Source of the DNA: Dissulfurispira thermophila
GTDB taxonomy: Bacteria > Nitrospirota > Thermodesulfovibrionia > Thermodesulfovibrionales > Dissulfurispiraceae
Assembly: GCF_014701235.1 (NCBI RefSeq)
Contig: NZ_AP022873.1
Span: 1,116,001-1,180,000 of the forward strand
DNA: 64,000 bases
Direction of reading: 5' to 3'
Each line of letters opens with the position of its first letter. Positions within the stretch are counted from its first letter, which is position 1. Under the pieces are notes generated by a model, which saw only the letters and a program-made list of their open reading frames with translations, was not told where the DNA came from and made no database searches. Positions 17,078 through 22,656 of the stretch are shown in pieces. A program made the position numbers and the translations under genes.

Positions 17078-17722
17078 ATGACCAACCGATTAATAGAAAT
17101 CTTTGAAGATGAAAAACTGGTAGCACGAATCCAAAAGCGACTACCGCATCTATTTCAACTCGCAGAATTTGAAAGCTCCAGGGCAGGGAAAATTGGAATG
17201 GAAATCGGTTCTGTTCGTGAGAGAATAATTGTTGCGTTACTCATCTATAAGTTCGGTGAAGCTAATGTAGAGTCAGAAATTCCTATCACAGAATCAGAAG
17301 TGGATGTAAAACTATTTGGTGAGCCTATATCTGTAAAAACAATAACAGGAAATAGCTTCGGTGGAGTTAAGTTGATATGGACAGTAGATGCTGAAAAGGC
17401 AAGACAATTTAGTGAAGAATATCAGCCCAGGTGTGATATGCTGTTTGTTCAAATAAACTGGGGAAAAGAAGGGGGGCTTTACTACATACCTATAAAAGTT
17501 CAGAGAAGACTTTTTGATAAAATAGGAAAAAAGGAGTATATAAAACTTCCAAAAGCAGGAACAAACCCGAGAGGTGTTGAGATTACGAAAGAAGCATTGA
17601 CGAGTTTGGTTGAAGATACCGAGACAAAGGTCATTAAAATAAATTGGCAACGCAGCGAAATAAAATTTAATCCTTACAAAAGATGGGTTGACCTTTGGAA
17701 GGAGGACAGAAATGAGCTCTAA
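17078..17722 (+). CDS. Type II restriction endonuclease, ThaI-like family
   Basis: 214 residues. Resembles the ThaI family (ThaI cuts CGCG), with the conserved block SRAGKIGMEIGSVRERIIVALLIYKF-type segment at about 34-60 and a probable PD-(D/E)xK core in EVDVKLFGEPISVKT (about 75-90), then VKLIWTVDAEKA and CDMLFVQINWG. The methyltransferase gene overlaps its 3' end. There is no Shine-Dalgarno; TATAAT lies 5 bases before the ATG, suggesting a leaderless transcript. Family recall is from sequence memory; the recognition site is not proven. Confidence 0.75.
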   Translation: MTNRLIEIFEDEKLVARIQKRLPHLFQLAEFESSRAGKIGMEIGSVRERIIVALLIYKFGEANVESEIPITESEVDVKLFGEPISVKTITGNSFGGVKLIWTVDAEKARQFSEEYQPRCDMLFVQINWGKEGGLYYIPIKVQRRLFDKIGKKEYIKLPKAGTNPRGVEITKEALTSLVEDTETKVIKINWQRSEIKFNPYKRWVDLWKEDRNEL

Positions 17723-18665
17723 TCATAGAAATAAAAGAAATGGCACAAAAACAAGTGCCTTTGGTTCTCCGGGACGAATTGGTCATGATTCAAGTTCTTT
17801 TTATGCCAGCAGATTATACGAGGGTTTACCAAAGGAAAATAAAGTTAAGTATTTGGAAAACCCTGTACCAGCAAATTGTTTAGATAAAATCTTTTGCAAG
17901 ACAAGTGAAAACATGGAGGAATTGCCGGACAATAGTATTCACCTCATGGTTACATCACCACCTTATAACGTAGGGAAGGTGTACGATGAAAACCTTACTA
18001 TGAATGAATATAGAGCATTTCTAAAACGCGTGTGGTCAGAAACAAAAAGGGTTTTGGTCCCTGGAGGTAGAGCTTGTATTAATATCGCCAATCTCGGAAG
18101 AAAACCTTACATTCCCCTTCATACTTTTATTATTGAAGACATGCTTGATCTGGGTTTTTTGATGAGAGGTGAAGTGATTTGGAATAAAGCATCCAGTAGC
18201 AGCCCATCAACTGCATGGGGTAGTTGGCTTTCTGCACAGAATCCAACCCTTAGAGATATTCATGAATACATCTTAATTTTTTCAAAAGATATCTTTTCAA
18301 GAGGTAACCAGCATCATAAAAAAAGCACAATCACACGTGACGAATTTTTAGAGTTTACAAAAAGTGTCTGGACATTTTCAGCAGAGTCAGCAAGAAAAGT
18401 TGGCCATCCCGCTCCTTTCCCTGTGGAGCTTCCATACCGATTAATTCAACTTTATACATTCAAAGAAGACATTGTCTTAGACCCTTTTGTTGGAAGTGGA
18501 CAGACAGCAATTGCAGCAATAAAAACAGGGAGACACTATGTCGGATACGATACAAACGAAGAATATGTAAAGCTCGCAGAGAGACGGATTGAAGGATTCT
18601 CCAGAGCCTTTAAATCTCTTAAATTGTTTAAACCAGAAAAGCAAGCCTTATTAAGCAATAAGTAA
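17712..18665 (+). CDS. DNA methyltransferase of the restriction-modification pair
   Basis: 317 residues. Motif IV TSPPYNVG comes before motif I DPFVGSGQT, the beta-class order. The SPPY form usually means N4-cytosine methylation, which fits a CGCG-type partner. The start is taken as ATG at 17712 behind GGAAGGAGG, overlapping the endonuclease gene by 11 bases; a TTG at 17688 is less likely. Overlap with the endonuclease suggests coupled expression. A good terminator follows. Confidence 0.88.
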   Translation: MSSNHRNKRNGTKTSAFGSPGRIGHDSSSFYASRLYEGLPKENKVKYLENPVPANCLDKIFCKTSENMEELPDNSIHLMVTSPPYNVGKVYDENLTMNEYRAFLKRVWSETKRVLVPGGRACINIANLGRKPYIPLHTFIIEDMLDLGFLMRGEVIWNKASSSSPSTAWGSWLSAQNPTLRDIHEYILIFSKDIFSRGNQHHKKSTITRDEFLEFTKSVWTFSAESARKVGHPAPFPVELPYRLIQLYTFKEDIVLDPFVGSGQTAIAAIKTGRHYVGYDTNEEYVKLAERRIEGFSRAFKSLKLFKPEKQALLSNK

Positions 18666-18691
18666 AAAAGAGTTACATAACACTTAAATCC

Positions 18692-18724
18692 AGCGGACGG
18701 CGTGAAAGGCCGCCGCTTATTTTT
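18692..18724 (+). terminator. Factor-independent terminator after the methyltransferase gene
   Basis: AGCGG-A-CGGC pairs with GCCGCCGCT (one bulged A), with loop GTGAAAG, followed by TATTTTTA. GC-rich stem with T-rich tail. Confidence 0.8.
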
Positions 18725-18761
18725 ATGTTATCGCTCATTGCGGGCAGGGAAGGAAGAAAAA

Positions 18762-18941
18762 ATGAATAAACAAACTATGTTTGCAAGATTAATTATTTTT
18801 AGATATGGGGTAATCCTCTTATCAAGTATTTTTGTTACAATCCATTTAGTCGGATGCATGACCCCCTGGCGAGGTAGGTACTTCTTCGTGGCAAGCCCGA
18901 CTGAATTACCAGAAAAAGACCAAAAACCTGATAGTATCTAA
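18762..18941 (+). CDS. Small putative lipoprotein
   Basis: 59 residues from the ATG behind GGGAAGGAAG. A hydrophobic segment (about 10-30) ends in LVGC, an acceptable lipobox with Cys at about 31, leaving a mature part of about 28 residues rich in P, E and K. No family recognised. It lies between the restriction-modification pair and the ATPase. It could be a real small lipoprotein or a decayed gene. Confidence 0.45.
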   Translation: MNKQTMFARLIIFRYGVILLSSIFVTIHLVGCMTPWRGRYFFVASPTELPEKDQKPDSI

Positions 18942-18970
18942 ATCTTGAAACCTCTATCGGCAAATTTGGG

Positions 18971-18994
18971 AAGGAAAAGCCTTTTATACTGATA
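18971..18994 (+). repeat. 24-bp direct repeat, left copy
   Basis: Starts AAGGAAAAGCC and ends TACTGATA; identical to 20492-20515, which lies in codons 9-16 of the ACR3 gene. The two copies bracket the DUF4143 ATPase gene. A 24-base exact match is far beyond chance in a 64-kb window, so it is either a target duplication or a leftover of the ACR3 gene start. Confidence 0.85.
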
Positions 18995-19022
18995 AGTGAT
19001 TCATCAAAGTTGTAAACTCAAA

Positions 19023-19051
19023 TTGACAATAATAAAGTATTATTGTAAACT
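19023..19051 (+). promoter_or_regulatory. Promoter with internal palindrome for the ATPase gene
   Basis: TTGACA at 19023-19028, 17-base spacer, TAAACT at 19046-19051. A perfect inverted repeat, ACAATAATA-AAG-TATTATTGT (19026-19046), fills the spacer, so a repressor bound there would block the promoter. The ATG at 19057 is 5 bases past the -10 element, predicting a leaderless message. Confidence 0.6.
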
Positions 19052-19056
19052 TGAAC

Positions 19057-20421
19057 ATGCAAAAATCTGCCATTACAGATCTTACAGAAAGTCTTTATTT
19101 TTATAATCCATGGTGGGAAACAGGCAGTGTCCCCTCCTATCTCACACAGCAGTATCATCGGCCTGTTGTAAAAGACATCATTTCTTATCTGTCACTTGAC
19201 AGGGTCATTATCCTTAAAGGTCCCCGCAGGACAGGCAAGACAACTATTTTTTATCAGATTATAGACAATCTTATCAAAAGTGGCATTTCTGCTAAGGATA
19301 TACTTTTTGTTACTTTTGACGACATTAGATTGAGGGTTGATTTTGATGAGGTCATTAAGGCATATGAACTGATACGTAGAGGGGAGATAAAAGATGCAAG
19401 CCGAATATATGTATTCATGGACGAGGTGCATTTTCTTGAAAACTGGCAGTTTTTTGTAAAAAAGTATTTTGACAGAAAATATCCTATAAAATTCCTTATT
19501 TCTGGCTCTGCTGCCTCACTGATAAAGAAGGGTTCTGAGTCTCTGGCAGGAAGGACTATTGATGAAATAATACTCCCATTCAGTTTTTATGAGTTTTTAA
19601 GCCTTCAGTCAAGAGATCATAGGATGATGAAAGTGATTGCAGATTTAAGAGAGGGTTTCAGGTATTTTGAACCTATAGACACTATAGATTTAATCCCTTA
19701 CCTTACAGAAATAAAGATGAAATTTGAGGAGTATATAGAAAAAGGAGGGTTCCCTAATCTCTTTGCTATTAAAGAGCCCCTGCTATGGAAGAGGCTTGTA
19801 AGGGAAGATATTATTGAAAAGGTCATATACAGAGATATGGTTGAACTATATGATATAAAAAAACCAGAGGCACTTGAGAAACTCTTCTTATACCTGACAG
19901 GCATCACCTCTGAAATCCTGAGCGTGACGAATATAGCAAACTCTCTTGGATTGAGCAGGGAATACACGGAGAAATATCTCTATTATCTTGAACAGTCGCT
20001 TCTTATCAAAAGATTGCGGAAATATGCCAGATCTATTGAAAAGAGCATCAGAAGTTTAGAAAAGCTGCATATCCTTGACAGCGGACTGATAAATGCATTT
20101 TCAAGGGTTGATATTAGCAAGACAATAGAGACCATCATTGTCAGCCATCTCATAAGGCTGAAAGGGGCAGATGTCTTTTATTTTAGAGAAGGCTATGAGA
20201 TGGATGCAATTATAGAATTAGACAAAAAGGTCTATCCCGTAGAGGTTAAATACAAGGATGACATATCTAAGAAGGAATTAAGAGGCATTGAAGGTTTTTA
20301 CAAGAAATTTAAGTCAGACAGGGCAATAATAGTAAGTAGAGATAATTTAAAAGAAGAGCATATAAACGGCTGCAATGTGTTGTTTATCCCTGCATGGCTT
20401 TTTACCCTGCTTGTAGGATGA
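19057..20421 (+). CDS. AAA_14/DUF4143-family ATPase
   Basis: 454 residues. Walker A GPRRTGKT at 55-62, Walker B-like IYVFMDEVHFLENW near 123-136, sensor ISGSAAS near 153, then a C-terminal DUF4143 domain that ends in a nuclease-like fold (AIIELDKKVYPVEVKYKDD). This family is common, patchy and spread by transfer in bacteria and archaea; function unknown. It is flanked by the 24-bp direct repeat, the right copy of which is inside the next gene. The start follows from the promoter position; a TTG at 19051 would fall in the -10 element. Confidence 0.85.
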   Translation: MQKSAITDLTESLYFYNPWWETGSVPSYLTQQYHRPVVKDIISYLSLDRVIILKGPRRTGKTTIFYQIIDNLIKSGISAKDILFVTFDDIRLRVDFDEVIKAYELIRRGEIKDASRIYVFMDEVHFLENWQFFVKKYFDRKYPIKFLISGSAASLIKKGSESLAGRTIDEIILPFSFYEFLSLQSRDHRMMKVIADLREGFRYFEPIDTIDLIPYLTEIKMKFEEYIEKGGFPNLFAIKEPLLWKRLVREDIIEKVIYRDMVELYDIKKPEALEKLFLYLTGITSEILSVTNIANSLGLSREYTEKYLYYLEQSLLIKRLRKYARSIEKSIRSLEKLHILDSGLINAFSRVDISKTIETIIVSHLIRLKGADVFYFREGYEMDAIIELDKKVYPVEVKYKDDISKKELRGIEGFYKKFKSDRAIIVSRDNLKEEHINGCNVLFIPAWLFTLLVG

Positions 20422-20467
20422 TAATGATGTGTTCAAAGTTATATAATCCATTCTCGGAGGAATAAAA

Positions 20468-21448
20468 ATGGCGAGACTTTCAACAAAGGATAAGGAAAAG
20501 CCTTTTATACTGATAGGCGCTGTTATTTTAGGGATAATTATTCAGAGGATTATCGGAAGAGAGATCCCACAATTGATCTATCTTACAGAGATAGGTGTAT
20601 TCTTCGTCATCTTTGCAGTGATGCTTCCTGTTGAGATAAAGGATGTTGGAAAGGCATTTAAAAAGATTAAACCCACAGCAATAGTTCTTTTTGTCAACTT
20701 TATCTTCATTCCAGCATTTGCGTGGACAATGGGATGGCTGATCCTCAAAAACTATCCTGACTTCTGGGTGGGCGCAATCCTTTATACCCTCACGCCATGC
20801 ATTGGCTGGTATCTTATATTTACCGACATTGCAAAGGGTGATGTCCCATGGGGAATAGCGCTTTTGCCATGGAACATAACACTTCAGGTGGCATTGATGC
20901 CCCTTTATCTATATATCCTCGTTGGAAAGATCATACCTGTTGATATCATGACCCTTGCAAGGAGCGTTGGATTGTTCCTTGTTGCGCCCTTTGCCCTGAG
21001 TTATCTCATTCAGAAGATATTGATCAAAACAAAGGGAAGGGATTATTTTTTCGGACCATTTAAATCCGCCATGGGAGAGGTGAAGCTCTGGGCTCTGGTA
21101 ATAGTTATAATGAGCATGTTTATATCTCAGAGGTCCCTTGATGTCTCTGATATTAACAAGGTAGGACTCCTCATCATTTTCCTTATAGCCTTTTTCTTTG
21201 TCTTATTCATTCTTGCCGTAATAATCGGCAAGCTATTCAATCTCGGCTATGAGGACACTGTTACAATGGCATTCACAACAACAGCAAGAAACTCCGAGGC
21301 AGTAATAGGAGTGGCAGTGGCAGCATTCCCCGGACATCCGCTCGTCTATCTTGCCATCATCCTCGGGCCTGTTGTAGAACTGCCTATGCTTTTGCTTTTA
21401 GCAAGGATATTGTTAGGATTGAAGGAGCATCTCGCTATCTGGAGGTAA
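20468..21448 (+). CDS. ACR3-type arsenite efflux permease
   Basis: 326 residues, about ten membrane helices, BASS/ACR3 fold. The signature [17 protein letters not shown] (about 108-125) holds the conserved Cys of helix 4, and [21 protein letters not shown] (about 275-295) the conserved Glu of helix 9, both features of ACR3. Exports arsenite, the product of ArrAB, across the inner membrane. Good Shine-Dalgarno (CGGAGGAAT). Codons 9-16 carry the right copy of the 24-bp repeat. Divergent from classic ACR3 in the helix 4 motif, so specificity for another oxyanion or antimonite remains possible. Confidence 0.8.
20492..20515 (+). repeat. 24-bp direct repeat, right copy
   Basis: Second copy of the sequence at 18971-18994, inside the 5' coding part of the ACR3-like gene (KEKPFILIG region). 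Confidence 0.85.
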
Positions 21449-21823: not shown

Positions 21824-22261
21824 TTAAGGATTTTCTATCAACCTCTTCACAACCTTCAGAAAGTCCTCTATAACACTAATGTCTTCTTTCAGATGCTTGA
21901 CTACCCTTCTGTCATCTACTTCATGATAAAGATGTATAAGGATATTTCTGAAACCAGCCATTGATTTAAGTCTCACAGCATACTGAGCATCTATATAACC
22001 CATATCCTTTAATATCAAAAAGCACTCTCCATATTCATCAGGAACTTTTCCAGCAAGTCTTGCAACAATATGATGGCATATATCGATCACAGCCTGAATA
22101 GCTACGATGAAATTGTATTTTATTGCATTGAGGACTGTTTTATTAGAAATGATTTCCGTTTCTGAAAGATCTGCATATCCAGTAAGTGCATCAACCGCCT
22201 TTCTAACCTCTTCTGAAAGTGCCTTTAACCTCTCAATGTTAAGTTCCCTGTATTTACTCAT
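21824..22261 (-). CDS. hepT: HepT-like HEPN toxin
   Basis: 145 residues, all helical, HEPN/DUF86. The ribonuclease motif Rx4HxY is present as RNILIHLY at about 106-113. HepT RNases are silenced by the partner nucleotidyltransferase, which adds AMP to the motif Tyr. The partner gene lies directly upstream and overlaps by 4 bases. Convergent with the YnfA gene. Confidence 0.9.
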   Translation of the reverse strand: MSKYRELNIERLKALSEEVRKAVDALTGYADLSETEIISNKTVLNAIKYNFIVAIQAVIDICHHIVARLAGKVPDEYGECFLILKDMGYIDAQYAVRLKSMAGFRNILIHLYHEVDDRRVVKHLKEDISVIEDFLKVVKRLIENP

Positions 22262-22656
22262 GGCGATACCAGATCAAGGAGTATCTGCCTCCTCTTTGGC
22301 AGGAGGTCAAAATACCTCTTCCAGCTCTCTTCAAGAAAATCACATCTTATATCATCATCTTTTGAAAAGAGCAATATACCTTTTGTAGCAAAGTATTTAA
22401 GACCTACAGGTGCATAATTTATTACCCTAATATCCAAAGGAGAGATGCCCGTCTCTACCTCAGTAATTGCAGAGATTTCCAATCCATAATCAAGGGCATC
22501 CTCCTTTGTCACAGCCTTCTCATCAACAAAAACAGCCACATCAATATCCCTGAATGACAATCCTTCTGCAAAAGAGCCATAAATATAGGCAAATATTATC
22601 TCCTGCCTTTTTTCGAGGAATTCCCTGAGAATCCTAATTATCTCTCCCTTATTCAT
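22258..22656 (-). CDS. mntA: MntA-like nucleotidyltransferase antitoxin
   Basis: 132 residues, minimal nucleotidyltransferase fold with GSFAEGLSFRDIDVAVF: GS followed by eight residues and DxD, two shorter than the common GSx10DxD. Forms a toxin-antitoxin pair with HepT (4-base overlap). Promoter TTGAGA, 16 bases, TATAAT on the minus strand (plus-strand 22663-22690); the -10 ends 6 bases before the ATG with no Shine-Dalgarno, so a leaderless message is likely. Confidence 0.88.
   Translation of the reverse strand: MNKGEIIRILREFLEKRQEIIFAYIYGSFAEGLSFRDIDVAVFVDEKAVTKEDALDYGLEISAITEVETGISPLDIRVINYAPVGLKYFATKGILLFSKDDDIRCDFLEESWKRYFDLLPKRRQILLDLVSP

What the first reader, a model, noticed from the sequence alone, without database searches (positions are those of the whole stretch)
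18971..20515. 24-bp direct repeat bracketing the DUF4143 ATPase
An exact 24-base copy of ACR3 codons 9-16 lies 1.5 kb upstream. Between them sits one ATPase gene with its own repressible-looking promoter. This looks like insertion of the ATPase at the ACR3 gene start with duplication or restoration of the target.
Basis: partly seen in the sequence, partly recalled or inferred. Interest (0 to 1): 0.55.

Follow-up and report, generated by a model that had tools for sequence, protein, structure and literature searches.

The report
IS-flanked relic of arsenite-pump gene start
The repeated 24 bases are real, but the extra copy looks like a scrap of an arsenite-pump gene left beside the end of a jumping element, rather than a footprint of the neighbouring ATPase gene inserting itself; this is ordinary genome debris.

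Summary
The exact 24-bp direct repeat (18971-18994, 20492-20515) is real. It occurs nowhere else in the 2.37-Mb genome at up to 3 mismatches and is not chance. The right copy is native: acr3 codons 9-16 inside an intact gene whose codons 1-8 are conserved in relatives. The left copy lacks codons 1-8 and 17 onward. A plain target-site duplication by the ATPase predicts acr3 codons 1-8 before the LEFT copy; only 5 of 24 bases match there. Instead the left copy starts at the first base outside an IS1380-family right terminal repeat (18930-18970; 34 of 40 bases identical to IS ends in a same-family genome; transposase family). None of 38 other acr3 loci carries the ATPase. None of 19 other DUF4143 loci has a flanking direct repeat above 13 bp. 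Best reading: an IS1380 element once sat in an acr3 copy after codon 8, and a later rearrangement (inferred; no empty site found) put the ATPase and an intact acr3 behind that junction. In passing, DUF4143 genes often start with an operator-like dyad.

The parts
18930..18970 (+). Right terminal end of an IS1380-family element (interior to the left, outside to the right), ending ...CTATCGGCAAATTTGGG
   Evidence: same end in same-family genomes G027 and G030, in G030:C278 beside a transposase hit by NF033539 IS1380; 34 of 40 identity to the G027 right end, 1 of 20000 shuffles outside the 17-mer
18971..18994 (+). Left repeat copy: relic of acr3 codons 9-16, directly outside the IS terminus
18995..19008 (+). 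Short junction between the acr3 relic and the ATPase promoter region
   Evidence: Sequence; promoter resemblance to the G013 homologue starts about 19009 (by eye)
19018..19054 (.). Operator-like dyad overlapping the ATPase promoter (TTGACA-17-TAAACT, 19023-19051)
19051..20421 (+). AAA_14-DUF4143 ATPase, 456 aa (PADLOC PDC-S01); TTG start at 19051, alternative ATG at 19057
20468..21448 (+). Intact ACR3-like arsenite transporter gene
   Evidence: relatives up to 90% identical over the full length
20492..20515 (+). Right repeat copy, native acr3 codons 9-16
18762..18941 (+). 59-aa lipoprotein-like ORF; its stop codon lies inside the IS-end similarity

Best explanation
The left 24-bp copy is a relic of an earlier acr3 copy that an IS1380-family insertion sequence had entered between codons 8 and 9. 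Shown: the IS right terminus ends at 18970, and the acr3 sequence starts at 18971 exactly as at an insertion junction. Inferred: the body and left end of the IS were lost. A later deletion, tandem-duplication collapse or replacement event placed the ATPase (with its own promoter) and an intact acr3 immediately behind the junction, leaving 24 bp (at most 28) of the old copy. The ATPase need not be mobile, and the repeat needs no present function.
For: The 17-mer CTATCGGCAAATTTGGG at 18954-18970 is found 44 times in same-family genome G027, and in 5 of 395 phylum genomes overall, with 0 hits for the backwards control in the rows shown. Several G027 copies lie at contig ends, as multi-copy IS ends do. 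In G030 it lies about 200 bp after an IS1380 transposase ORF. In same-genus G003 a 1623-bp element has a 439-aa ORF (73% identical to that transposase) and near-identical inverted ends. In the window's own genome two MITE-like elements with this terminus show direct flank repeats (GTCAA, TTTTC, read), so it is a true mobile-element end. Similarity continues 23 nt inward to the G027 right end (17 of 23; 1 of 20000 shuffles), not the left end (7 of 23). The acr3 N-terminus upstream of the right copy is conserved in relatives. The 24 of 24 identity, when the nearest sampled acr3 is 82% identical at DNA level, points to a source in the same lineage.
Against: No left IS end at up to 5 mismatches lies near the site and no transposase remains there (ORF list). 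The G003 element shows no evident target duplication. The step joining acr3 codon 16 to the ATPase promoter region is not documented by any relative. Only one genome per species is held, so no same-species empty site could be examined. Other acr3 loci are in different surroundings.
Confidence: 0.5

Rival explanations
1. Sloppy transposition by the IS1380-family element: while seated in acr3 at codon 9 it used a surrogate right end 24-28 bp beyond its own, carried that acr3 stub with it, and landed upstream of the ATPase; the acr3 copy was later healed by excision or recombination.
For: ISEcp1, an IS1380-family element, is described as moving adjacent DNA by one-ended transposition with 5-bp target duplications and imperfect right ends (PMC12589106, passages seen). 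The stub sits immediately outside the right end.
Against: By eye the stub end shows no clear resemblance to the terminal repeat (about 7 of 17; not computed in a call); the left end is missing, so no target duplication can be tested; acr3 must also be healed.
Confidence: 0.15
2. Restoration: the resident acr3 had lost its head to the IS (IS end joined to codon 9 onward). Incoming DNA with the ATPase plus ribosome-binding site and acr3 head recombined in the acr3 sequence and rebuilt a working pump gene.
For: It gives exactly the observed order. The ATPase occurs at no other acr3 locus (0 of 38).
Against: It requires the incoming left edge to join right after codon 16; no relative has ATPase-acr3 as a donor; codons 1-8 are too short to test for a foreign origin.
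Confidence: 0.12
3. Simple insertion of the ATPase gene as a mobile unit with a 24-bp target-site duplication at the acr3 start.
For: One gene between exact direct repeats; repeat and ATPase co-occur.
Against: The left copy is preceded by an IS end, not acr3 codons 1-8 (5 of 24); the right copy has its head. 19 of 19 other DUF4143 loci lack flanking repeats above 13 bp.
Confidence: 0.04
4. Templated filler: repair of a break at the IS terminus copied 24 nt from acr3 1.5 kb away.
For: Clean boundaries on both sides; template on the same molecule.
Against: No clear microhomology at the left junction (by eye); nothing specific supports it.
Confidence: 0.12
5. The left copy has a function, for example an antisense RNA read leftward that would pair with the acr3 message over 24 nt.
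For: Perfect 24-nt complementarity of such an RNA.
Against: No minus-strand promoter-like site just right of the copy; no Rfam family over it; no conservation.
Confidence: 0.03

Closest known systems
IS1380-family insertion sequences (ISEcp1 type)
   Same: Terminal repeat and right-end sequence shared with elements whose transposase hits NF033539 and PF13701
   Different: Here only about 41 bp of the right end remain; no transposase, no left end, no testable target duplication
AAA_14-DUF4143 ATPases, PADLOC phage defence candidate PDC-S01
   Same: Pfam AAA_14 and DUF4143 above cut-off; PDC-S01 profile E 1.1e-69 over residues 33-451
   Different: Nothing shows that this family moves itself; defence role untested here and described as awaiting validation for most PDCs (PMC12988326, passages seen)
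ACR3 arsenite efflux transporters
   Same: SBF Pfam domain above cut-off; TIGR00832 acr3 hit E 1.1e-37
   Different: 130 bits is below the TIGR00832 curated cut-off of 282.8, so it belongs to a divergent ACR3-like branch

Membership tests
Target-site duplication made by insertion of the ATPase | Left copy preceded by the interrupted gene's own upstream part | tested here: not met
   5 of 24 positions match; IS end found instead
Target-site duplication made by insertion of the ATPase | Empty sites carry a single copy | tested here: inconclusive
   No second copy found in the other acr3 loci by BLAST at E<=0.01, but none is syntenic, so none is a true empty site
Target-site duplication made by insertion of the ATPase | Similar repeats around other members of the gene family | tested here: not met
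   19 of 19 DUF4143 loci: longest shared flank word 7-13 bp
IS1380-family element end | Terminal inverted repeat shared with IS1380 transposase-bearing elements | tested here: met
   transposase (159.6 bits on a 5'-truncated ORF, cut-off 180)
IS1380-family element end | Transposase gene and both ends in one element | tested here: not met
   Window holds one end only
IS1380-family element end | Target duplication of about 5 bp on both sides | not testable with these tools
   The left end is gone
PADLOC PDC-S01 / DUF4143 ATPase | AAA_14 plus DUF4143 domains | tested here: met
PADLOC PDC-S01 / DUF4143 ATPase | Protects against phage | not testable with these tools
   No assay

The most novel reading that the evidence does not exclude
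The arrangement records a repair: an IS1380 element beheaded the arsenite pump gene, and DNA carrying a phage-defence-candidate ATPase together with the missing gene head recombined in and restored the pump, so that a defence gene hitchhiked on selection for arsenic resistance.
Probability: 0.12. Interest if true: 0.4.

Novelty: new member of a known kind. Interest (0 to 1): 0.2.

Why it matters
It removes a tempting but wrong lead (a self-inserting DUF4143 ATPase with a 24-bp target site) and replaces it with a mobile-element relic, in a stretch that also holds a restriction-modification pair ending in an attC-like integron site. The side observation may matter more: genes for DUF4143 ATPases, a very common but unvalidated defence candidate, often start with an operator-like dyad, which suggests regulated or self-regulated expression and can be tested.

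Tried and rejected
Regulatory or antisense role for the left copy: no support. A CRISPR-repeat idea for the sequence left of the copy, raised by its CTTGAAAC: dropped when the relatives showed IS ends at contig ends. MITE identity of the end: the own-genome MITE-like elements share the terminus but not the 23 nt inside (8-9 of 23), so an IS right end fits better. Left terminus of the same element within the window: none at up to 5 mismatches near the site. tRNA target: no tRNA in the window. Plasmid searches gave only matches under 60% identity for the ATPase and acr3. The literature search for DUF4143 returned one paper in the held library (listing only); the integron search and the Dissulfurispira search were seen as listings only. 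The latter was made because I recall that genome as similar in size; it did not establish the organism's name.

Limits: the IS families were compared only in the genomes held, one per species. Six of the 38 acr3 loci (L008, L009, L013, L019, L034, L035) have less than 1.6 kb upstream and could not have shown the whole ATPase. L042 and L043 appear to be the same records as L003 and L004 and were not counted again. In the dyad tests start codons were assigned by simple rules, some homologues share related dyads, and the controls come from the window and the acr3 loci rather than from the same genomes, so the counts are not independent or perfectly matched; 3 of 30 loci had no complete ORF and were dropped.

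Full report
Observation. The window holds AAGGAAAAGCCTTTTATACTGATA at 18971-18994 and 20492-20515, exact and in direct orientation. No other place in the window or the genome comes within 3 mismatches. Chance is excluded for practical purposes: 0 matches in 100 shuffles, and among 5000 random gap placements only those that I take to hit this same repeat reach 23-24 bp.

Which copy is native. acr3 (20468-21448) is intact, and its start, [19 protein letters not shown], is conserved with little change in the closer relatives, including codons 1-8. The nearest relatives are 89-90% identical over the whole protein. The right copy is therefore the native one. The left copy carries codons 9-16 only; its flanks match acr3 at 5 of 24 positions on the left and 7 of 24 on the right. 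An insertion with target duplication would leave the gene's own head in front of the left copy; the reverse is seen.

What lies left of the left copy. A search of 176 genomes of the order with 18640-19060 showed that 18930-18971 recurs in same-family genomes, three times in G027 and also in G030. The G027 copies lie at contig ends, and in G030:C278 the sequence follows an ORF that hits the IS1380 transposase model NF033539 (E 8.9e-47; 159.6 bits, under the 180-bit cut-off, on an ORF that runs off the contig) and PF13701. In G003, of the same genus, a 1623-bp element has near-identical inverted ends and a 439-aa ORF, 73% identical to that transposase. The exact 17-mer occurs in 5 of 395 phylum genomes, 44 times in G027 and three times in the window's own genome. 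Two of the own-genome copies end MITE-like elements of 163 and 340 bp with short direct flank repeats. The 23 nt inside the terminus match the G027 right end at 17 positions (1 of 20000 shuffles) but not the left end (7 of 23). The terminus GGG at 18970 abuts the first base of the repeat. The terminus may include one further base (GGGN), which would move the junction by one.

None of 38 acr3 loci from other genomes has a match to the ATPase (32 with at least 1.6 kb upstream), a second repeat copy (E<=0.01) or an IS terminus at up to 3 mismatches. These loci are not syntenic with the window, so they are not true empty sites. Around 19 other DUF4143 genes from 60 relatives, the longest direct word shared by the two flanks is 7-13 bp.

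Mechanism. The best-supported reading is that an IS1380-family element had entered an acr3 copy after codon 8, and that a later deletion, duplication collapse or replacement left the IS end plus 24 bp of that copy in front of the ATPase and an intact acr3. The insertion junction is read directly from the sequence; the later event is inferred. The perfect identity of the relic, when the nearest sampled acr3 is only 82% identical at DNA level, argues that the relic came from the same lineage. One-ended transposition of the ISEcp1 type (PMC12589106, passages seen) could also carry a short stub of neighbouring DNA, and remains a rival. A restoration event, in which incoming DNA with the ATPase supplied the missing acr3 head, also fits the order and is kept as the most novel reading.

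The ATPase and its promoter. The ATPase matches AAA_14 and DUF4143 and the PADLOC phage defence candidate PDC-S01, which a recent survey calls the fourth most common across prokaryotes, with validation pending for most such candidates (PMC12988326, passages seen). Its promoter-overlapping dyad is reached by 1 of 200 shuffles. Dyads this strong (at most 1 of 200 shuffles) lie at the start of 8 of 20 DUF4143 genes including this one and 9 of 27 in a second set of loci, against 0 of 42 and 7 of 238 control ORFs.

Verdict. Observation confirmed. The interpretation survives only in that ATPase and repeat co-occur at this locus alone and that a restoration variant is not excluded. The repeat itself is most likely mobile-element debris.

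Noticed in passing
window 19018-19054; L064, L065, L067, L068, L070, L075, L078; L162, L164, L165, L166, L168, L169, L171, L180, L182: Operator-like dyads near the start of AAA_14-DUF4143 (PDC-S01) genes: 8 of 20 and 9 of 27 at no more than 1 of 200 shuffles, against 0 of 42 and 7 of 238 control ORFs. Sequence differs among members; placement is similar in most but not all.
   Followed up: partly
window 18677-18731: attC-like integron site (bottom strand folds, z -3.59) right after the ThaI-type restriction (17078-17722) and methyltransferase (17688-18665) pair; related sites in G134, G142, G047 and others. The pair looks like an integron cassette.
   Followed up: partly
window 18727-18774: The leader before the 59-aa lipoprotein-like ORF (TTATCGCTCATTGCGGGCAGGGAAGG...ATG) recurs at 24-50 bp in about ten genomes of the order, perhaps a cassette start.
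   Followed up: no
L040 3120-3176: Nitrospiraceae Ngb-4 contig keeps only the first 19 codons of an acr3 of this branch inside what looks like an arsenic operon: another headpiece relic.
   Followed up: no
L146 2321-2483 and L145 2208-2547 (own genome): MITE-like elements of 163 and 340 bp with IS1380-type ends and short flank repeats GTCAA and TTTTC.
   Followed up: partly
window 21824-22656: HepT-like ribonuclease and Polbeta nucleotidyltransferase pair on the minus strand, a toxin-antitoxin-like pair beside the arsenic genes.
   Followed up: no
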